DNA of 64,000 nucleotides from Brevibacterium sp. W7.2. GTDB taxonomy: Bacteria > Actinomycetota > Actinomycetes > Actinomycetales > Brevibacteriaceae. The stretch covers positions 248,001 through 312,000 of the forward strand of contig NZ_CP073089.1 of assembly GCF_018137945.1 (NCBI RefSeq), written 5' to 3'. Both the position numbers and the translations under genes were made by a program. A model generated the notes under the pieces. That model searched no databases, had not been told where the DNA came from, and saw only the letters and a program-made list of their open reading frames with translations. Shown here one piece after another: positions 3,353 through 48,769 of the stretch; the stretch's first letter is position 1, and each line of letters opens with the position of its first letter.

Positions 3353-4539
3353 CGGCTCCCATCCCCGACGTCGTCGTCCACAACGCGGTCATCCTCGACA
3401 GCGATCCCGCGACGTTCTCAATCGACTTCGCCGACACGTGGATCGCCGTCGCCGACGGCATCGTCGTCGACCGCGGTCGGGGCGTGATGTGGCACCAGTG
3501 CGCGAGTCCGGCGACGCGGATCATCGACGCCGAGGGCGCCTACCTCGCCCCCGCGTTCGTCGACATCCACACCCACGGCGGCGGCGGGCACAACGTCGAG
3601 GACGGCCCCGACCACCTCGGCGCGATCCTCGACGTCCACCGCGCCCACGGCACCCGTGCCCTCATCCTCTCCTATGTCTCCGACACGATCGCCGGGCTCG
3701 CGTCCTCGCTGCGGGTCGGGGCGGGACTCGCGCGGGAGAATCCCGCGGTCCTCGGACTCCACGCCGAAGGCCCGTTCCTCTCCCCGGATTTCAAGGGCGC
3801 GCACTCCCCGGAGGTGCTCACCGCCCCGACCCCCGAGGCGGTCGAGACCATCCTCGAGGCCGCGGGCGGGCAGCTCGCCCAGGTCACCCTCGCACCCGAA
3901 CTGCCCGGCGCACCCGAGGCGATCGCCCGCTTCGCGGACGCCGGGGTGAGCGTGGCCGTCGGCCACACCGCCGCCGACTACGCGCAGACGATGCGGGCCT
4001 TCGAGGCGGGCGCGAGCATCCTCACGCACGCGTTCAACGGGATGCCCGGCATCCACCACCGCAGCCCGGGTCCGATCCTCGCCGCCCTCGACGCCCCGCA
4101 CGTCACGCTCGAACTCATCAACGACGGCATCCACGTCCAGGCCCCGGCCGCGCGGCTGGTCACGGGGCTCGCGCCGGGTCGCGTCGCCCTCATCACCGAT
4201 GCCATGGCGGCCACCGGGATGGGCGACGGGGACTATGTGCTCGGCAGTCTGCCGGTGCGGGTCGAGGACTCGGTCGCCCGGGTCAGGTCCGCCGACGGAT
4301 CGGTCGGGTCGATCGCCGGATCGACGCTGACCATGGACGATGCCGTGCAGCGGGCCGTCGCCGAGGTGGGGATGAGTCCGATCGCCGCCGCCCAGGCCGC
4401 GGGGCTGACTCCCCTGCGGGCACTCGGCCGTCTCGCCCCCGACGTCCACAGCCTCCTGCGGGTGGGTCAACCCGCCGACTGCGTCCTCTTCGACGCCGAG
4501 ATGCGGGTGACGACCGTGTGGATCGGGGACCCGAGCTGA
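3349..4539 (+). CDS. nagA: N-acetylglucosamine-6-phosphate deacetylase (possibly also GalNAc-6-phosphate)
   Basis: A 396-residue amidohydrolase. The metal site is visible as HTHGGGG (His74 and His76), the HAEGPF segment with Glu140, the later VGHTAAD and THAFNGM histidines, and the catalytic aspartate in LITDAMAATGM. NagA removes acetate from GlcNAc-6-phosphate; the homologue AgaA does so with GalNAc-6-phosphate. The GTG start overlaps the deoR stop (GTGA). With a ROK kinase, PfkB kinase and bisphosphate aldolase in the same run of genes, but no nagB in view, the operon fits a galactosamine-type route whose deaminase/isomerase and transporter would lie upstream of the window. Confidence 0.9.
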   Translation: MTAPIPDVVVHNAVILDSDPATFSIDFADTWIAVADGIVVDRGRGVMWHQCASPATRIIDAEGAYLAPAFVDIHTHGGGGHNVEDGPDHLGAILDVHRAHGTRALILSYVSDTIAGLASSLRVGAGLARENPAVLGLHAEGPFLSPDFKGAHSPEVLTAPTPEAVETILEAAGGQLAQVTLAPELPGAPEAIARFADAGVSVAVGHTAADYAQTMRAFEAGASILTHAFNGMPGIHHRSPGPILAALDAPHVTLELINDGIHVQAPAARLVTGLAPGRVALITDAMAATGMGDGDYVLGSLPVRVEDSVARVRSADGSVGSIAGSTLTMDDAVQRAVAEVGMSPIAAAQAAGLTPLRALGRLAPDVHSLLRVGQPADCVLFDAEMRVTTVWIGDPS

Positions 4540-4585
4540 GGGTCTGGTTGCCCGGGAGAGCCGATGTCATGGGAAGATGGTCGGC

Positions 4586-5056
4586 ATGGATGCCCTGCTC
4601 CTCATCGACACCGACGACACAGCGCTGACCTCCGAGAAGGCCGTCGAGACCCTCGGCGGGATCGTCGGCCGCACCCGTGCGGTGGGCGGAGTGCTCATCT
4701 TCGCCACGACGAACGAGGAGGTCTCCGGTCGCGACGACGAGGAGATCAGCGTCTTCGGCCCCGACGAGGAGGACCTCGTCCTCCGCTCGGACAACCCCGA
4801 CATCTTCGAAGGCGTCGACGACCTCGCCGCCGGTCTCCACGACATGGCCGTCGACCGGATCGTCATCGCCGGAGTCGATGAGAACCCCGGGGCCGTGTGG
4901 GCCTCGGCGATGGCGGCCCTCGTCTGCAACTTCGACGTCATCGTTCTCTCCGACTCCGTCGTCAGCGCCGCCGGCGATCCCGTCACCTGGGCCGATGCGG
5001 CCGAAGAGGCGGGTGCCATGGTCAAGCGCACCGAGGACACCTGGCTGCGCATGTGA
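4586..5056 (+). CDS. Isochorismatase-like protein lacking catalytic residues
   Basis: A 156-residue protein whose outline follows the cysteine-hydrolase (isochorismatase) fold: LLLIDTDD at the N-terminus, an RAVGGVLIFATT strand, VLRSDNPDIFEG, and RIVIAGVDENPGAVWASAM then FDVIVLSDSVVS. The first Asp is kept, but the position of the catalytic Lys reads Arg (VLRS) and the nucleophilic Cys of the usual GV-x-T-x-x-CV turn is missing (GVDENPGAV). It is therefore probably not a hydrolase and may be a binding or regulatory relic. I prefer the second ATG at 4586 because GGGAAG at 4571-4576 is nine bases from it; the ATG at 4577 abuts that site. It follows nagA by 46 bases and may be co-transcribed. 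Family assignment is by eye. Confidence 0.6.
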   Translation: MDALLLIDTDDTALTSEKAVETLGGIVGRTRAVGGVLIFATTNEEVSGRDDEEISVFGPDEEDLVLRSDNPDIFEGVDDLAAGLHDMAVDRIVIAGVDENPGAVWASAMAALVCNFDVIVLSDSVVSAAGDPVTWADAAEEAGAMVKRTEDTWLRM

Positions 5057-5141
5057 CTGCCGACCGCCTCGGCGCGGGCGGGATGATTCAGCCCACGCGG
5101 CCACAGCGGCACGGCCCTTCGCGGCAGACCGGTGTCACCAC

Positions 5142-5214
5142 CCGTTTGTGGTCACAAACCCGAGCGCGATAGCCGTTTCGGCCGCGTTTCGCTCGGTTCT
5201 GTGACCACAAACGG
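5142..5214. repeat. 73-bp imperfect hairpin repeat, copy 1
   Basis: The left arm CCGTTTGTGGTCACA pairs with the right arm TGTGACCACAAACGG; two mismatched positions follow and then CCGAGC pairs with GCTCGG. The stem is about 23 of 25 pairs with a 25-base loop that contains TTCGGCCGCGTTTCG. The same 73-bp element recurs in the same orientation at 6373-6445, so the nuclease gene at 5247-6188 sits exactly between two direct copies. It lies just downstream of that gene's stop and could act as a terminator. No U-tract follows. Confidence 0.85.
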
Positions 5215-5246
5215 GGCCCGGGCACTCGCACTGGTCGACTCTGCGG

Positions 5247-6188
5247 TCAGAGGAGCCCCTTCTGCGTCAGCCGCTGGCGGATCGCGAATTCGAGCTGGAC
5301 CATGTCGGTTCGCGAATTCACGCGGATGATCAGCCAGCCCTCGGCATTCAGTGCGTTGACCCGGCGAATGTCCTCATCCCACTGAGTCCTGTCGGTGCGG
5401 TGGTGGTCTCCTTCGTACTCGAGTCCGAGCAGCGCCCTGCGATAGCCGAGATCAGGATGGATCTCGACACCGAGCTGGCGGCAGAACACCGCGGGATGGA
5501 CCTCGGGCTCGGGCAGCCCGACCGATATCGCCCACAGTCGCAGATCGGTCTCGCGCGGTGAATCGACCCCCGGGCGGACGAGCTCGAGCCCGCTTTCGGC
5601 CACTCGTCTGCGGCGGATCGACGCGCGTGACCTCAGGTGTGCGACGAGCTCCTCGAGGGTGCAGAGCGGCGGCCCATGCCAGCGACCGATCATCGCATCG
5701 CCGACGCGGACCAGTTCGTCGCGGTCGAGGATGGTCGCCAGCTGCAGGAAGAGGACGGACGGAGACACGAGGGTGTGGCCGAGGATGCTCACAGTGGAGA
5801 AATCGGCGACCCGGTGCCGCACGACAGACGATCGTCGGATGCGCAGGTCTCTGTCGTCGCTGCAGACATGGAGAGGGCCGTCGGTGAGCCGGCGTGGCAG
5901 CGGCAGTCCGAAGAGCCGCGCCGCCGAGGAATGGCTCGCCGCGATGAGCGGATACCGGAGTTCAAGCGCTCTGAGCGCTTCGCTCTCGGCTTCCCATTGC
6001 TCATCCGCCCACGAGGGCACTTTTCGCCACACGGTCTGCAGGTCGTCAGCGCGGATGCCGTGAGAGATCGTGCGGACGCTGGAGCGTTGACGAAGGTCCC
6101 ATTCCGTCACACCGTGTTCGCCGGCATCGCCCGTGAGGAACAGGCGATGCGAAGGGCGAGTGTCGAGGTAGCCGAACATGTGCACCAT
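5247..6188 (-). CDS. Vsr-like (PD-(D/E)XK) nuclease-domain protein with AbiEi-like N-terminal half
   Basis: From the ATG at 6188 the product is 313 residues; the frame is open further upstream but runs into the hairpin repeat at 6373-6445, so an earlier start is unlikely. The N-terminal part contains the HSSAARLFGLPLP segment typical of actinobacterial AbiEi-like proteins. The C-terminal 110 residues look like a very-short-patch-repair type nuclease: PRETDLRLWAI, an HPDLGYRRALLGLEYEGDHH core with Asp and Glu metal ligands, and a final GWLIIRVNS strand. Related solitary proteins are common in high-GC actinomycetes and their role is unknown; defence, toxin or mobile-DNA functions are all possible. 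No partner antitoxin or toxin gene is adjacent. It is isolated between two direct hairpin repeats. Confidence 0.65.
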   Translation of the reverse strand: MVHMFGYLDTRPSHRLFLTGDAGEHGVTEWDLRQRSSVRTISHGIRADDLQTVWRKVPSWADEQWEAESEALRALELRYPLIAASHSSAARLFGLPLPRRLTDGPLHVCSDDRDLRIRRSSVVRHRVADFSTVSILGHTLVSPSVLFLQLATILDRDELVRVGDAMIGRWHGPPLCTLEELVAHLRSRASIRRRRVAESGLELVRPGVDSPRETDLRLWAISVGLPEPEVHPAVFCRQLGVEIHPDLGYRRALLGLEYEGDHHRTDRTQWDEDIRRVNALNAEGWLIIRVNSRTDMVQLEFAIRQRLTQKGLL

Positions 6189-6372
6189 CGTGGCCAGGGG
6201 TGTGTGGAAGCGAAAGGGCTGAGATGGCGCCTGTGGACAGCGTAGGGTTATGCAGCCGATTGTGGAGACGAGTGGGTAGCGAATGTCGCCGAGACGGTGC
6301 GAGTACTTATCTGACGGCGTCCTGACGCGGCCGCACGCGTGTGATCTGCAGTGATGCAGAGGTGCAGGGGCT

Positions 6373-6445
6373 CCATTTGTGGTCACAAACCCGAGGATGA
6401 CAACTACTTCGGCCGCATTTTGCTCGGTTCTGTGACCACAAACGG
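6373..6445. repeat. 73-bp imperfect hairpin repeat, copy 2
   Basis: This copy has the same length and orientation as copy 1. The right arm (GCTCGGTTC then TGTGACCACAAACGG) is identical to copy 1; the left arm differs at one position (CCATTTGTGGTCACA) and the loop has diverged. Conserved arms around a drifting loop indicate selection on the folded form or on an arm-binding protein. Confidence 0.85.
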
Positions 6446-6613
6446 CACGGCTACTGTGGACGGCGCGCACGCAAGTGGATTGTCGACGGGCGAATTGTGA
6501 GTTCGAGTCACACGGTCATGATGTGGCGCCGCACATGTGACTCCTGCCCGCCTCGGCAGTGTGACATTGCTCTGAGCCGTCGGCGCTGACTGGCACGGCC
6601 ACCGGGCGCGGTT

Positions 6614-6626
6614 CTACACTGTGTAG
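6614..6626. promoter_or_regulatory. CTACA-N3-TGTAG dyad, BlaI/CopY-type operator candidate
   Basis: The 13-bp sequence CTACACTGTGTAG is an inverted repeat of the type bound by CopY/BlaI-family repressors in Gram-positive bacteria. It lies 44 bases before the copper-cluster membrane protein. The regulator itself is not in the window. The assignment rests on motif form and context. Confidence 0.45.
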
Positions 6627-6669
6627 TGGGTAAATGGAGCCTGCATGGACCCTGAGGTGAGGAGGTGGC

Positions 6670-7335
6670 ATGACCGGCTGGCACAAGTCGATCCGTGCTC
6701 TCTTCGCGGCCGTGATGACGACGATGCTCGCGGTCCTCATGCACGTCGGCGCCGGCGGTGACTTCTCCGCCCTCGGCACCGGCTTCGTCTTCGTCCTCGT
6801 CCTCTGGGCGGCGATGATCCTCGCGGGACGTCGCCTCGGATACCTCGCCCTCGCCGCGATCCTCGGCCTCGGTCAGCTCCTCATGCACGCCTCGATGGGC
6901 TGGTTCGGCCCGATGTCGTCGATGATGCGAGGGACTGCCGGTGGAACCGCCTCGGCGTCGCCGGATCCGACGATGTCGGCAGCCGAACACGAGCTCATGA
7001 CCCCGGCCACCGGGTCTCTCGACCTCGGTCAGGCCGCGCCGATGGGCCATTCGATGGGCCATGCCAACGGCGCCGGCCCGGGCATGATCATCGCCCACAT
7101 CGTCGCCGTCATCGTCACCGCGATCATCCTCAAGCGCGGTGAGGATCTCCTCTTCAGCATCCTCCAACTGGCACTGGGGCCGGTTGTCATCGCCCTGCGC
7201 GCGCTCGCGTCCGCGCAGCACAGTCTTGCGGGGGCGCGCCTGCGCGTCGTCCGCCATGTGCGCGAACTCCCGCGCATGGTGCCAGCGGCCGTCATCGGTC
7301 CGAACTACCGTCGCGGTCCTCCCGCGCTCGTCTGA
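6670..7335 (+). CDS. Membrane protein with Met/His-rich loop, probably copper-related
   Basis: A 221-residue integral membrane protein with about four hydrophobic segments: residues 8-30, 34-52, 57-77 and 137-158, the third continuing into amphipathic sequence. Between the third and fourth lies a Met/His-rich stretch (MSSMMRG, then MGHSMGH, around residues 80-128), typical of copper-handling proteins. A strong GGAGG site at 6661-6665 precedes the ATG. It heads a run containing a PCu(A)C copper chaperone and a DyP peroxidase, so a role in copper uptake, delivery or tolerance at the cytoplasmic membrane is likely. I do not recognise a named family and assign no transport activity. Confidence 0.6.
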   Translation: MTGWHKSIRALFAAVMTTMLAVLMHVGAGGDFSALGTGFVFVLVLWAAMILAGRRLGYLALAAILGLGQLLMHASMGWFGPMSSMMRGTAGGTASASPDPTMSAAEHELMTPATGSLDLGQAAPMGHSMGHANGAGPGMIIAHIVAVIVTAIILKRGEDLLFSILQLALGPVVIALRALASAQHSLAGARLRVVRHVRELPRMVPAAVIGPNYRRGPPALV

Positions 7336-23544: not shown

Positions 23545-23706
23545 CGTCGGTCGGTCTCCAGCGGAACCTGATCCGCACCGAGGCGGCGCCGCTCGCCTTC
23601 CGGTGAGCGGCGGCTCGCCTCCGCTGTGAGGGTCCTCCTCCCCTGCGGGTCATCCGCACTCGAGGACCCTTCACACTGAGGACCTACCACGCTGAGGCTC
23701 CTGCGC

Positions 23707-23764
23707 CCCCGAGGTGGATCCCGCTCGATAATCACGCGATCATCGAGCGGGATCCACCTCGGGG
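23707..23764. repeat. Perfect 23-bp-stem palindrome
   Basis: The arm at 23707-23729 (starting CCCCGAGGTGGATCCCGC) is the exact complement of 23742-23764, with a 12-base loop AATCACGCGATC. The stem is longer than a terminator needs. The gene end of the SPFH protein is 160 bases upstream. Confidence 0.85.
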
Positions 23765-23840
23765 CCGTCGTCATGTCCGCGGGAACCACCTCGTGGCGTA
23801 ATGTCCGCGGGCACCCAACGGGGACGTCGTCATATCCGCG
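23750..23840. repeat. Three degenerate direct units ending in TCCGCG
   Basis: Units at 23750-23781, 23782-23809 and 23810-23840 each begin GG, contain an ACC(A)CC-like block and end in a variant of CGTCGTCATGTCCGCG. The first unit shares the right arm of the adjacent palindrome. Confidence 0.55.
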
Positions 23841-32587: not shown

Positions 32588-34066
32588 ATGGGTGAGGCAG
32601 TGAGTTCGAAGCGGTACACACCGGAAGAGCGGACCTTGTACCGCGAGAAGCTCGCGGAGAATCTGGAGCTCTTCGACACGTACCTCCGTCATGCCGAATT
32701 CAAATCGGCGGGCACGATCGGGCTCGAACTCGAGCTCAACCTCGTCGACGAGGACAATCAGCCGAGCCTGCGGAACAAGGAGGTGCTCGCCGACCTCGAC
32801 GACGAGTTCCAGTCCGAGATCGGCGGCTTCAACCTCGAACTCAACCATCCGGTCCTCCAGGTCGCCGGGCGCGGACTGAAGACCCTGGAGTCCGGGGTCG
32901 CCGATCGCCTGGCCCGGGCCAAGCGCGCCGCCAAGGCGAAGGGGCTGAAGATCGCCTCGATCGGGACCCTGCCGACGCTGACGACGCAGTTCCTCAGGAC
33001 CGAGCCGTGGATGACGGAGGAGAACCGCTACGCGGCGCTGAGCAACTCGGTCATCGACGCGCGCGGGGAGTACGTGCAGATCGAACTCGACGGCAAGGAG
33101 ACGTACCGGCAGGAGTTCTCCGACATCGCCCCGGAGTCCTCGTGCACGTCGATGCAACTCCACCTCCAGGTCGCCCCGAACAAGTTCGCCGAGGCATGGA
33201 ACGCCTCCCAGGCGATCGCCGCCGCACAGGTCGCGGTGAGCGCGAACTCCCCGCTGTTCGTCGGCCACAAGCTCTGGCACGAGTCGCGGATCCCCGTCTT
33301 CGGCCAGTCGATCGACACCCGCACCCCGGAGCTCGTCACCCAGGGGGTGCGCCCGCGCGTGTGGTTCGGGGAGCGGTGGATCACGAGCGTCTTCGACCTC
33401 TTCGAGGAGAACGTCCGCTATTTCCCGCCGCTGCTGCCGGAGATCAAGGACTTCGTCGAGTTCAGCGATGCCGATGCCCCGAAGCTCTTCGAGCTCAACC
33501 TCCACAACGGCACCGTGTGGCGGTGGAACCGGCCGATCTACGATGCCGGCGACAACGGCGCGCACATCCGGGTGGAGAATCGTCTGCTGCCGGCCGGCCC
33601 CACCCCCGTCGACATGGTCGCCGATGCCGCGTTCTACTACGGACTCGCCGAGTTCCTCGTCGGAGAGAACCGTCCCGTCTGGTCGCGGATGTCCTTCGCC
33701 GAGGCGCGCGAGAACTTCTTCGCGTGCGCGAAGGACGGCATCACCGCCCGGGTGACGTGGCCGAAGATCGGGCACATCGCCGTCTCCGATCTCGTCATCG
33801 ACGTCCTCATCCCGCAGGCCCGCCGCGGTCTGCGGCGCCTCAACATCGACAAGGACGTCATCGACGAGTACATGTCGATCATCGAGGGCCGTGCTGAGCG
33901 CAAGGCCAACGGGGCGACGTGGCAGCTGCGGATGCTCGACCGGCTTGCGCCGGGCAGCCGGAAGAACACCCGCGAACGCGACGAGGGGCTCAAGGCGATG
34001 ATGGACGCCTACCTGACGAACCAGGAGAGCGGCCGCCCCGTCCACACATGGGACGTCCCCGCGTGA
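32588..34066 (+). CDS. GCS2-family glutamate-cysteine ligase-like protein
   Basis: A 492-residue member of the GCS2 family. The nucleotide/metal segment AGTIGLELELNLVDE near residue 42 and the later ESSCTSMQLHLQV and HNGTVWRWNRPIYD segments fit the gamma-glutamylcysteine ligase fold. Actinomycetes usually make mycothiol rather than glutathione, so the true acceptor may differ. The ATG at 32588 lacks a clear ribosome site; a GTG at 32600 is an alternative. Its last ten codons belong to a 135-bp sequence repeated downstream at 34582-34716, flanking the next small gene. Confidence 0.75.
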   Translation: MGEAVSSKRYTPEERTLYREKLAENLELFDTYLRHAEFKSAGTIGLELELNLVDEDNQPSLRNKEVLADLDDEFQSEIGGFNLELNHPVLQVAGRGLKTLESGVADRLARAKRAAKAKGLKIASIGTLPTLTTQFLRTEPWMTEENRYAALSNSVIDARGEYVQIELDGKETYRQEFSDIAPESSCTSMQLHLQVAPNKFAEAWNASQAIAAAQVAVSANSPLFVGHKLWHESRIPVFGQSIDTRTPELVTQGVRPRVWFGERWITSVFDLFEENVRYFPPLLPEIKDFVEFSDADAPKLFELNLHNGTVWRWNRPIYDAGDNGAHIRVENRLLPAGPTPVDMVADAAFYYGLAEFLVGENRPVWSRMSFAEARENFFACAKDGITARVTWPKIGHIAVSDLVIDVLIPQARRGLRRLNIDKDVIDEYMSIIEGRAERKANGATWQLRMLDRLAPGSRKNTRERDEGLKAMMDAYLTNQESGRPVHTWDVPA

Positions 34067-34171
34067 GGGGTTTGCGCTGACTGCCCCTCACCTTGCCCTG
34101 ACGCCTCGACTCCAGGTCGTTCTGGACAGATTCTCGGCTGAATATTCTGCCCAGAACGACCTGAAGTCAGT
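34037..34171. repeat. 135-bp direct repeat, copy 1 (includes the 3' end of the GCS2 gene and a hairpin)
   Basis: It begins in the last ten codons of the GCS2-like gene (encoding PVHTWDVPA and stop) and continues through a long hairpin (34108-34168): the arm CAGGTCGTTCTGG pairs with CCAGAACGACCTG, with paired GACT/AGTC and CAGA/TCTG blocks either side of single mismatches. It is about 93 percent identical to 34582-34716. Confidence 0.9.
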
Positions 34172-34581: not shown

Positions 34582-34716
34582 CCCGTCCATACGTGGGACG
34601 TCCCCGCGTGAGGCGTTTGCGCAGACTGCCCCTCACCTTGCCCTGACGCCTCGACTCCAGGTCGTTCTGGACAGATTTTCGGCTGAATGATCTGTCCAGA
34701 ATGACCTGAAGTCAGT
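34582..34716. repeat. 135-bp direct repeat, copy 2
   Basis: Offset 545 bases from copy 1. It still encodes PVHTWDVPA and stop in frame, but with synonymous changes (CAT for CAC, ACG for ACA), and it keeps the hairpin (34653-34713) with arm changes. Synonymous drift in the coding part argues that this end was once translated as the terminus of a homologous gene. Confidence 0.9.
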
Positions 34717-40597: not shown

Positions 40598-41353
40598 TCA
40601 GCGCCGTGCGGCTGCGAAGAGCTCGGTGCGGTAGGGCACCGCGACGATGCCGTCGACGGAGCAGTCGTCTGCGAGAGTGCGAACGTCGGCGAGGAAGCTC
40701 GGGCCCTGGGCGGCAACGGCGCGTTGGGCCTGAGTTGAGCTCGCCGACATGCCGACGAAGTCGTCGACCGTCATCGTCCGCTCCCAGTCTGAGACGGTGG
40801 TGACGACGTCAGGGAGCGCGATGTCGAGACCTGAAGCGAGTTCGCCTGCGATGTCGATGGTGCGGTAGTCGCGCGTGTATCCGGGGCTGTGTGCTTCGAG
40901 CAGGCCCTCGTAGGCGTCGAGGAACGCGCTCGCGGCGTGATTGCGGTTGTTCTGGATGATGACGACCCGACCTCCGGGCCGCAGCGCACCCTGCGCGGCA
41001 TGGAGAAATGCCGGCCGGTCGAACCACTGGTAGGCCTGCGCTGCCATGACGACGTCGACATCGGCAAGCGCGGGAAGGTGGTCCTCCCCGCGTCCCTGCA
41101 GCCAGGTCACCATGGGAAACTTCCGTCGTCCGGCCTCGATCATGTCTCCCGACGGTTCGATGGCGACGACGTCGGGAGCGGTCAGCGTGGGCAGAGCCCA
41201 CTCCAAGCCGATTCCCGAGCCGGAGCCCACGTCAACGAGCCGCGCACCCTCCCGCAGGCCGTCGAATGCCACCTCGGCGAGGTCGGCCGGGTAGCGAGGG
41301 CGGTGCTTGTCATAGTCGTCGGCGAGGCCGTCGAATTTCGCGCGCTCGGGCAT
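40598..41353 (-). CDS. Class I SAM-dependent methyltransferase (Methyltransf_11 type) between 45-bp repeats
   Basis: A 251-residue methyltransferase. Motif I is LVDVGSGSGIGLEWA (about residues 39-53), the acidic end of strand 2 is VVAIEPSGDM, motif post-I has the DVVMAAQAYQWFD segment and motif III is LRPGGRVVIIQ. It acts on a small molecule; substrate unknown. An AGGAG site precedes the ATG at 41353, and an operator-like dyad sits just upstream. The gene is oriented against the MocR gene and fits exactly between the two 45-bp repeats, which suggests it was inserted as a unit. Confidence 0.85.
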   Translation of the reverse strand: MPERAKFDGLADDYDKHRPRYPADLAEVAFDGLREGARLVDVGSGSGIGLEWALPTLTAPDVVAIEPSGDMIEAGRRKFPMVTWLQGRGEDHLPALADVDVVMAAQAYQWFDRPAFLHAAQGALRPGGRVVIIQNNRNHAASAFLDAYEGLLEAHSPGYTRDYRTIDIAGELASGLDIALPDVVTTVSDWERTMTVDDFVGMSASSTQAQRAVAAQGPSFLADVRTLADDCSVDGIVAVPYRTELFAAARR

Positions 41354-48103: not shown

Positions 48104-48769
48104 CTATTTCGGCCAGGCGTCGGCGAGGCGGGTGAGGAGGTTCGCGAGAGTCTCCTTCTCCTCGTCGGTGAACGAGTCGAGGGCGACATCGACGCTGGCC
48201 TTCTGCGCGCCGAGGAAGCGGTTCGTGATCGCCCGGCCCTTGTCGGTGAGCGCGATGAGCGTGCGCCTGGCGTCGTCGGGATCGGCCTCCCTGCGCAGGA
48301 GGTCGAGTTCGACGCCCTGCGCGACGAGGCGCGAAGCGCGAGGCTGATCGACGCCGATCGCCTCGCCGAGAGCGCTGACGCCGATCGCATGCCCCACCTG
48401 GGCGAGTGCGATGAGCAGACGCAGCTGGGCGCGTCCGCCGAGGCGACCTCCCAGGCGGCGTGCCCACTCCCGCCACTCGTCGCGTCCGACGGTCTCCCCG
48501 TGACTGTGGCCGTCCGTGTCGGTGAAGTGGCTGCCGAATGGTCCGTCCTTGCCGAAGGGGCCGCTGTCACCGAACGGACCGCCGTCGCCGAAGGGGCCGT
48601 TCTCGCCGAAGAGCCCGTCCTTGCCGAACGGTCCGCCGTGCTGTCGGCCGTGGCGGCCCCCGGGACCTCCCGAGCGTCCGCCGGGTCCGCCGGGTCCCGC
48701 GAATCCGCGGAAGCCGCGCCTCCACTGGAGCTTGGTGAGCGCCTCGGCGATCTTGTCGGTGGTGTCCAT
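48104..48769 (-). CDS. MarR-family regulator with GPFG-repeat N-terminus
   Basis: A 221-residue MarR protein. The DNA-binding core lies at about residues 105-215 (GVSALGEAIGVDQPRASRLVAQGVELDLLRR, DARRTLIALTDKGR). Residues 20-85 form an unusual low-complexity region: a Gly/Pro/Arg stretch and then six near-tandem G-x-FG units (GPFGKDG, GLFGENG, GPFGDGG and variants), ending in a His/Asp/Gly segment. MarR proteins normally have only a short helix here. Divergent from an RG/GF-rich protein, with ACATGT sites in between, so it probably represses both itself and that gene. Confidence 0.83.
   Translation of the reverse strand: MDTTDKIAEALTKLQWRRGFRGFAGPGGPGGRSGGPGGRHGRQHGGPFGKDGLFGENGPFGDGGPFGDSGPFGKDGPFGSHFTDTDGHSHGETVGRDEWREWARRLGGRLGGRAQLRLLIALAQVGHAIGVSALGEAIGVDQPRASRLVAQGVELDLLRREADPDDARRTLIALTDKGRAITNRFLGAQKASVDVALDSFTDEEKETLANLLTRLADAWPK

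What the first reader, a model, noticed from the sequence alone, without database searches (positions are those of the whole stretch)
5142..6445. A solitary nuclease gene bracketed by two 73-bp direct hairpin repeats
Two elements of identical length and orientation (5142-5214 and 6373-6445) flank exactly one gene, a Vsr/AbiEi-like nuclease. The arms (TTTGTGGTCACA / TGTGACCACAAA, then CCGAG/CTCGG) are conserved and the loops have drifted, so the folded form or an arm-binding protein matters. The layout resembles a minimal mobile cassette or a REP-plus-nuclease pair in which the nuclease could recognise the hairpin. No transposase or integrase is present. This is the best candidate here for an undescribed system.
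Basis: partly seen in the sequence, partly recalled or inferred. Interest (0 to 1): 0.75.

Follow-up and report, generated by a model that had tools for sequence, protein, structure and literature searches.

The report
Nuclease genes paired with scattered hairpins
In Brevibacterium and related actinobacteria a gene for a probable DNA-cutting enzyme sits between two copies of its own private DNA hairpin, more copies of that hairpin are scattered through the genome, and enzyme and hairpin change together, which looks like an undescribed bacterial repeat system.

Summary
In detail: two direct 73-bp hairpins (85% identical) bracket one 313-aa AbiEi/Vsr-type nuclease gene. It is not a local oddity. 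In 57 Brevibacterium genomes I examined 132 of 140 nuclease loci; upstream and downstream flanks match each other in 96 of 132 (2 of 285 control genes), with a different hairpin sequence per nuclease clade. At conserved positions where nucleases are 50-65% identical, positional hairpins are unrelated while left and right match (52 of 52 pairs). For three clades, dispersed hairpin copies track the cognate nuclease (6/6, 7/7, 9/9 genomes with it; 5/51, 10/50, 11/48 without). Genes mostly stay at fixed positions, so 'mobile cassette' fits poorly and 'REP-plus-nuclease pair' fits well. Matching pairs also flank homologues in other actinobacterial families (14 of 27 best-scoring loci). Predicted fold: AbiEi-like N-terminal half plus I-Bth0305I/Vsr-type catalytic domain with invariant active-site residues. 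Best reading: a system that works like REP/RAYT but uses an unrelated nuclease. Hairpin recognition, cutting and copying are inferred, not shown. Nine searches of open-access papers listed no description.

The parts
5142..5214 (+). family-A hairpin, copy downstream of the nuclease gene
6373..6445 (+). family-A hairpin, copy upstream of the nuclease gene, direct orientation
5247..6188 (-). 313-aa AbiEi-like/Vsr-type nuclease gene (alternative ATG at 6179)
5250..5573 (-). C-terminal PD-(D/E)XK-type catalytic domain, residues 206-313; D246, E257, H263, D273, R276 invariant in 44 homologues
   Evidence: I-Bth0305I catalytic domain Z 10.9, Vsr Z 9.2
5574..6155 (-). N-terminal AbiEi-antitoxin-like region, residues 12-205; probable DNA-binding part (inferred)
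   Evidence: (6y8q Z 10.9, rmsd 5.3)
23704..23767 (.). copy of another hairpin family (B), the one that brackets the paralogous nuclease L013 of the same genome
   Evidence: I18; local alignment score 34

Best explanation
It is a resident two-part genetic system that works like REP/RAYT but is built on an unrelated enzyme. Part one is a gene for an AbiEi-like, probably DNA-binding region fused to a Vsr/homing-endonuclease-type nuclease, mostly inherited at a fixed position. Part two is a lineage-specific family of roughly 50-75-bp hairpins: two copies bracket the gene and others are dispersed. SHOWN by sequence: the pairing, its specificity per nuclease clade, the joint change of both flanking hairpins, maintained base-pairing (one family tested), the link of dispersed copy number to the cognate nuclease (three families tested), and a gene absence that leaves one hairpin (one locus). 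INFERRED: the nuclease recognises its hairpin (perhaps through the N-terminal half, in duplex or extruded form) and nicks or cuts there, and repair from another copy homogenises and spreads the hairpins; when the gene is lost by recombination between its own hairpins, the copies remain and decay.
For: Flank match in 96 of 132 nuclease loci against 2 of 285 control genes and 12 of 2428 offset placements. Concerted change: in 52 of 52 syntenic pairs at 50-65% nuclease identity the within-locus match beats the positional one (medians 29.4 and 7.0). Copy number tracks the cognate nuclease in three families. Compensatory change in family F: 8 pairs changed on both sides against 2.7 in shuffles, 95.0% of cells paired against 28.6-49.8% when slid. 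Empty site with one hairpin at the same junctions. In G003, which has many family-F hairpins but no clade-F nuclease, a hairpin and a 44-residue trace of the nuclease (61% identity) remain where its relative G024 has the gene. Active-site residues invariant in 44 homologues. Same layout in other genera and 7 further families.
Against: No binding, cutting or new insertion was observed. 36 of 132 genus loci do not reach the cut-off and 13 of 27 class loci do not score 24 or more. Hairpins occur without the cognate nuclease in 5 of 51, 10 of 50 and 11 of 48 genomes; G035 has 35 family-F hits and no nuclease match at all at the threshold used. At the one polymorphic dispersed site examined no insertion junction or target duplication could be read. 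Genomes are not phylogenetically independent, so the p-values are too small by an unknown factor. The domain correlation is weak evidence: the domains are collinear and their weights change with the subset.
Confidence: 0.62

Rival explanations
1. A homing-type selfish cassette: the nuclease cuts single-hairpin sites and the hairpin-nuclease-hairpin unit is copied in by recombination through the hairpins.
For: Catalytic domain closest to homing endonuclease I-Bth0305I (Z 10.9); empty sites carry exactly one hairpin; a clade-F nuclease sits at another position in G024.
Against: Genes mostly stay at conserved positions; copies within a genome are at most 60% identical; empty G027 and G035 nest among filled genomes, so losses are simpler (although one inner node has support 0.38); 41 of 96 pairs are inverted.
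Confidence: 0.2
2. The hairpins are operators: an AbiEi-like regulator binds palindromes to regulate itself and a small regulon; the nuclease domain is incidental.
For: AbiEi-like fold of residues 12-205; one hairpin lies upstream of the gene. That AbiEi proteins bind inverted repeats at their promoter is recalled.
Against: A matching copy also lies downstream; active-site residues are invariant; long stems keep pairing through compensatory change; several copies lie between convergent ORFs; hit counts exceed 20 in many genomes.
Confidence: 0.1
3. The hairpins are spread by another enzyme and the nuclease gene merely sits in a hairpin hotspot.
For: Hairpins occur in genomes without the cognate nuclease. 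Genomes were not searched for Y1 transposases.
Against: Hairpin sequence follows nuclease clade and both flanking copies switch together; copy number tracks the nuclease in three families.
Confidence: 0.06
4. Ordinary transcription terminators or chance repeats.
For: Several copies lie between convergent ORFs; 31 of the sliding placements away from the locus in the window also reach the cut-off, though none exceeds 22.5.
Against: No T-run follows the two window hairpins; pairs are specific to their locus; gene-centred controls give 2 of 285.
Confidence: 0.02

Closest known systems
REP/RAYT (REPtron, TnpA-REP) and TIRtron systems
   Same: Enzyme gene bracketed by palindromic repeats, family-specific copies dispersed in the genome, repeats without the enzyme in some genomes (passages of PMC3733652); enzyme and repeat groups co-evolve (abstract of PMC8266576); REPINs as miniature non-autonomous mobile DNA (abstract of PMC3116915). 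Vertical single-copy inheritance of RAYTs is recalled.
   Different: RAYTs are HUH/Y1 tyrosine transposases; here the enzyme is a PD-(D/E)XK-type nuclease with an AbiEi-like half. The hairpins here are about 50-75 bp against 20-40 bp given for REPs (start of the abstract of PMC3733652). A GTAG or CGTC tag was not systematically looked for.
Vsr-like homing endonuclease I-Bth0305I
   Same: Same catalytic fold (3r3p, Z 10.9, rmsd 3.0, 94 residues).
   Different: Free-standing gene between hairpins; the empty site keeps a whole hairpin; AbiEi-like N-terminal half; mostly conserved position.
AbiE type IV toxin-antitoxin (AbiEi antitoxin)
   Same: Residues 12-205 resemble AbiEi (6y8q, Z 10.9, rmsd 5.3, 168 residues); weak PADLOC AbiEi matches in some of 44 homologues, at most 10 for one model, none for the window protein.
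   Different: No AbiEii match in the two neighbours at the window locus; fused to a nuclease with its active-site residues kept.
DUF559 / REase_MTES_1575 proteins
   Same: Sequence family of the C-terminal domain: 39 and 20 of 44 homologues match at E<=0.01. MTES_1575 is described as a Vsr-fold REase fused to HEPN and other domains (passages of PMC3710099).
   Different: No hairpin association in the passages read. 14 papers hold the word DUF559; none of the listed titles or abstract starts mentions such repeats; their full texts were not read.
Rv2827c (PDB 1zel)
   Same: Best Foldseek match (E 9.1e-4, TM about 0.4) and Z 8.6 over model residues 12-215.
   Different: Its genomic setting was not examined.

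Membership tests
REP/RAYT (REPtron) | Enzyme is a HUH/Y1 transposase | tested here: not met
   Pfam on 44 homologues: MTES_1575 (39), DUF559 (20), HGWP (1), no Y1 transposase family at E<=0.01; catalytic domain folds like I-Bth0305I and Vsr
REP/RAYT (REPtron) | Enzyme gene flanked by its own palindromic repeats | tested here: met
   96 of 132 loci against 2 of 285 control genes
REP/RAYT (REPtron) | Repeat family dispersed in extragenic space and linked to the cognate enzyme | tested here: met
   three families; of 7 dispersed own-genome family-A sites read, hairpins lie between or just beyond ORFs called by length and GC3, one ambiguous (L008)
REP/RAYT (REPtron) | Enzyme processes the repeat | not testable with these tools
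   needs biochemistry
Homing endonuclease cassette | Catalytic domain of a homing-endonuclease type | tested here: met
   3r3p Z 10.9 on a predicted model
Homing endonuclease cassette | Occupied and empty alleles, insertion destroying the recognition site | tested here: inconclusive
   an empty allele exists but keeps one whole hairpin
Homing endonuclease cassette | Cuts the empty allele and is copied in | not testable with these tools
   needs an experiment
AbiE toxin-antitoxin | Adjacent AbiEii toxin gene | tested here: not met
   window locus only: the two neighbours give a sub-threshold isochorismatase match and no match; other loci not checked
Insertion sequence / transposon | Near-identical gene copies within a genome | tested here: not met
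   125 within-genome pairs among 132 loci, highest identity 60%
Insertion sequence / transposon | Target-site duplication | tested here: inconclusive
   no readable junction at the one dispersed site examined
Pfam REase_MTES_1575 | Score above the curated cut-off | tested here: inconclusive
   window protein 27.8 against 38.2 bits, not reached; 39 of 44 homologues match at E<=0.01

The most novel reading that the evidence does not exclude
Actinobacteria hold a second, independently evolved REP-like world: in many lineages an AbiEi-Vsr nuclease maintains and spreads its private hairpin population inside the genome, recognition changes fast, and both flanking hairpins are rewritten each time. 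It would be a mostly vertically inherited selfish or domesticated DNA population driven by a restriction-type nuclease instead of a HUH transposase.
Probability: 0.45. Interest if true: 0.95.

Novelty: categorically new. Interest (0 to 1): 0.85.

Why it matters
REP elements are common bacterial repeats, and the only enzyme I know to be tied to them is a HUH transposase (recalled, and as described in PMC3733652 passages). A nuclease of a different fold with the same genomic behaviour would show that 'resident enzyme plus intragenomic hairpin population' arose more than once, would suggest a role for a large group of proteins now annotated only as DUF559/AbiEi-like, and would supply many natural enzyme-hairpin pairs for studying co-evolution of DNA recognition. 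How such hairpins spread becomes directly testable.

Tried and rejected
Rfam search of 4500-7000: two chance miRNA matches far below gathering scores. NCBIfam on the window protein: none. Chance or generic repeats: rejected by cross-locus, offset and gene-centred comparisons; the sliding control in the window is the least clean, with 31 placements away from the locus at 17.5-22.5. Control genes were called by ORF length and GC3, not by annotation. Insertion junction of a dispersed copy: the intergenic sequence differs wholly between carriers and non-carriers, so none could be read. REPIN-like close pairs in G006 (L291, L292) share hairpins but not, by eye, the DNA between them. Second empty-site test (qcrB-ctaF site of G024, 30 loci read): no family-F pair in other species; G003 has one hairpin and a trace of the gene, G032 a family-A-like hairpin. 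Apical motif GAAA/TTTC: in 43% of 60 apices from 30 hairpin families against 9% in shuffles, but the motif was chosen after looking, and GAA/TTC is also slightly raised in the stems (47% against 36%). Structure search: folds not listed are not excluded. Literature, nine searches: three returned no paper; some searches showed 15 of 1957, 26 and 1974 papers; no listed title or abstract start describes this system. Subscription papers and bioRxiv preprints were mostly not searchable. Not tested: Y1 transposases in these genomes, phages and plasmids, an empty allele of the window locus itself, and flank scores for the 8 genus matches outside the 132.

Full report
OBSERVATION. The two 73-nt elements at 5142-5214 and 6373-6445 are real, direct and 85% identical. 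As single-stranded DNA they fold far better than shuffles (z -4.4 to -9.1, 0 of 200). Between them lies one gene, minus strand 5247-6188, 313 aa. The genome is 3.86 Mb in one contig. Of 80 named loci retrieved with the protein family 69 are Brevibacterium, some on contigs with the same length and range as G-handle contigs, so I take the genus to be Brevibacterium.

THE HAIRPIN ELSEWHERE. A covariance model of family A (R1, 7 copies) finds 8 strong places in the own genome (E <= 2e-9 on the better strand) and a few weaker ones. At 7 dispersed sites read the hairpin lies between or just beyond ORFs called by length and GC3, at least three times between convergent ones; L008 is ambiguous.

THE KEY STEP: PARALOGUES HAVE OTHER HAIRPINS. 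The genome has two more nuclease genes, 47% and 40% identical. The 40% one (L013) is bracketed by a direct pair of a different hairpin, 87% identical, with spacing 1238 against 1231 in the window; a further copy of that family lies at window 23704-23767. The 47% one (L012) has two similar hairpins upstream and a different one downstream, and counts as a miss below.

GENUS-WIDE TEST. The protein search over 57 genomes gave 140 matches in 55 genomes, 1-5 per genome. I analysed 132 of the 140 (L011-L142); two more were fetched later only to assign their clade. Score: best local alignment, either orientation, of 450 nt upstream with 250 nt downstream. Same-locus median 26.2; cross-locus (proteins under 50% identical, 15,808 comparisons) 10.5. 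In 96 of 132 loci the own downstream flank beats every such other flank, and 96 of 132 reach 17.5, the 99.9th percentile of the cross-locus scores. Controls at 17.5: 12 of 2428 offset placements in the same loci; 2 of 285 other genes from 124 sources; in the window itself 31 of 1034 sliding placements away from the locus, none above 22.5 against 45.5 at the locus. Of the 96 pairs 43 are direct, 41 inverted and 12 ambiguous. The 36 misses include many strongly diverged homologues and one locus cut by a contig end (L039).

CONCERTED CHANGE. Syntenic on both flanks are 147 of 425 nuclease pairs at 50-60% identity, 71 of 119 at 60-70%, 56 of 80 at 70-80%, 64 of 67 at 80-90% and 49 of 51 above: the gene mostly stays in place. 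Copies within one genome are at most 60% identical (125 pairs). In the 68 loci whose hairpins could be paired, for syntenic pairs at 50-65% nuclease identity (52 pairs) positional hairpins score 7.0, left against right within a genome 29.4, and within exceeds positional in 52 of 52. At 65-80% it is 27 of 31; at 80% and above 22 of 57, as expected for recent splits. Both flanking hairpins are therefore replaced or converted together over time. Loci enter this comparison because their own pair matches, which raises the within-locus value; the finding is that positional matches fall to background.

DISPERSED COPIES FOLLOW THE NUCLEASE. Genomes with hits at E<=1e-6: family A, 6 of 6 with the clade-A nuclease and 5 of 51 without; family F (R2), 7 of 7 and 10 of 50; family E (R3), 8 of 8 and 12 of 49 as first assigned, 9 of 9 and 11 of 48 after G026 proved to have a clade-E nuclease (68-87% identity to its members). 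The models were built from copies that include those at the nuclease loci, so carriers have some hits by construction; the excess is in the counts: A, 6-38 hits against 0-6; F, 25-44 against 0-38; E, 22-62 against 0-19. Counts include both strands of one site and scored candidates were capped at 84-104 per genome, so they are rough. Fisher tests for A and F give 1.3e-5 and 7.4e-5, rank tests are; none is corrected for phylogeny. Exceptions: G003 (38 family-F hits) and G035 (35 hits) lack the clade-F nuclease. At the site where its close relative G024 has the gene, G003 has a hairpin, a 160-bp match inside the gene (76%) and a 44-residue trace of the protein (61%, E 1e-11).

EMPTY SITE. The gene upstream of the clade-F nuclease was searched in the genus (30 loci read, L223-L252). 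Six genomes are filled. In G035 and G027 left flank, one family-F hairpin and right flank join at the junctions seen in filled G026; G019, G003 and G024 also have one family-F hairpin there and no nuclease. G012 and G032 have a family-A hairpin at the same place, four species (G002, G016, G017, G046) a shared unrelated one, and others no such hairpin. In a tree of up to 2.4 kb of flank G027 and G035 nest among filled G048, G014 and G026 (the node that places G035 has support 0.38), so loss by recombination between direct hairpins is simplest.

PAIRING IS MAINTAINED. In 52 family-F copies (48 distinct) 95.0% of cells pair, 8 pairs show changes on both sides against 2.7 in shuffles (0 of 500 as high), and slid structures pair 28.6-49.8%.

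THE PROTEIN. AlphaFold2 on 44 homologues: mean pLDDT 95.4. Residues 210-312 match the I-Bth0305I catalytic domain (Z 10.9) and Vsr (residues 208-311, Z 9.2); residues 12-205 match AbiEi antitoxin (Z 10.9 but rmsd 5.3); Rv2827c gives Z 8.6 and MenT1 Z 8.0. Invariant residues include D246, E257, H263, D273 and R276, so activity is likely but not shown.

BREADTH. Of 11 loci from Microbacterium, Arthrobacter, Paenarthrobacter and Agrococcus, 10 score 18 or more; no cross-locus comparison was made there. In a class-wide search 224 of 394 genomes have a match. Of the 28 best-scoring loci outside the genus, 27 had both flanks; 14 of 27 score 24 or more against medians near 12.5, in 7 families; in 12 of these 14 the own score beats all other loci. 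These are the best matches, not a random draw.

MECHANISM. Shown: pairing, specificity, concerted change, copy-number link, a precise absence, maintained pairing. Inferred: recognition, cutting, repair-driven copying. The layout works like REP/RAYT, but the defining HUH transposase is absent, so it is not a member. A homing cassette is the main rival.

NOVELTY. Nine literature searches listed no description of such a pair. I read passages of PMC3733652 and PMC3710099, and abstract plus outline of PMC3116915 and PMC8266576. I rate it categorically new because the nearest kind fails its defining test; a reader who defines the kind by layout alone would call it a new variant of the REPtron.

Noticed in passing
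window 40598-41353: A methyltransferase-like gene (named by eye) has a non-palindromic 45-bp direct repeat with one mismatch in its two flanks; the only other called window gene above the cut-off.
   Followed up: partly
window 34037-34171 and 34582-34716: Two direct copies of 135 nt, 93% identical.
   Followed up: no
window 48533-48639: Array with an 18-nt period (five overlapping copies), perhaps a repetitive protein segment.
   Followed up: no
L012 1035-1292: Two related hairpins about 200 bp apart upstream of the 47% paralogue, with an unrelated hairpin downstream.
   Followed up: partly
L291, L292 (G006): Family-A hairpins in close pairs about 190 and 120 bp apart, REPIN-like in spacing.
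   Followed up: partly
L302 (G041) and L304 (G014): Both genomes carry about 2.3 kb extra at the intergenic site where some relatives have a family-F hairpin (coordinates).
   Followed up: no
L022, L023, L025, L026, L027: A further hairpin (CAGCTTGGTGAACCTGCAGC type) recurs about 0.7 kb downstream of these nuclease genes and is unlike their own pair.
   Followed up: no
L308, L310, L312, L315, L319, L323, L325 (family f27): Hairpins beside homologues in this family share the arm GATCATGG across loci, suggesting one widespread hairpin family.
   Followed up: no
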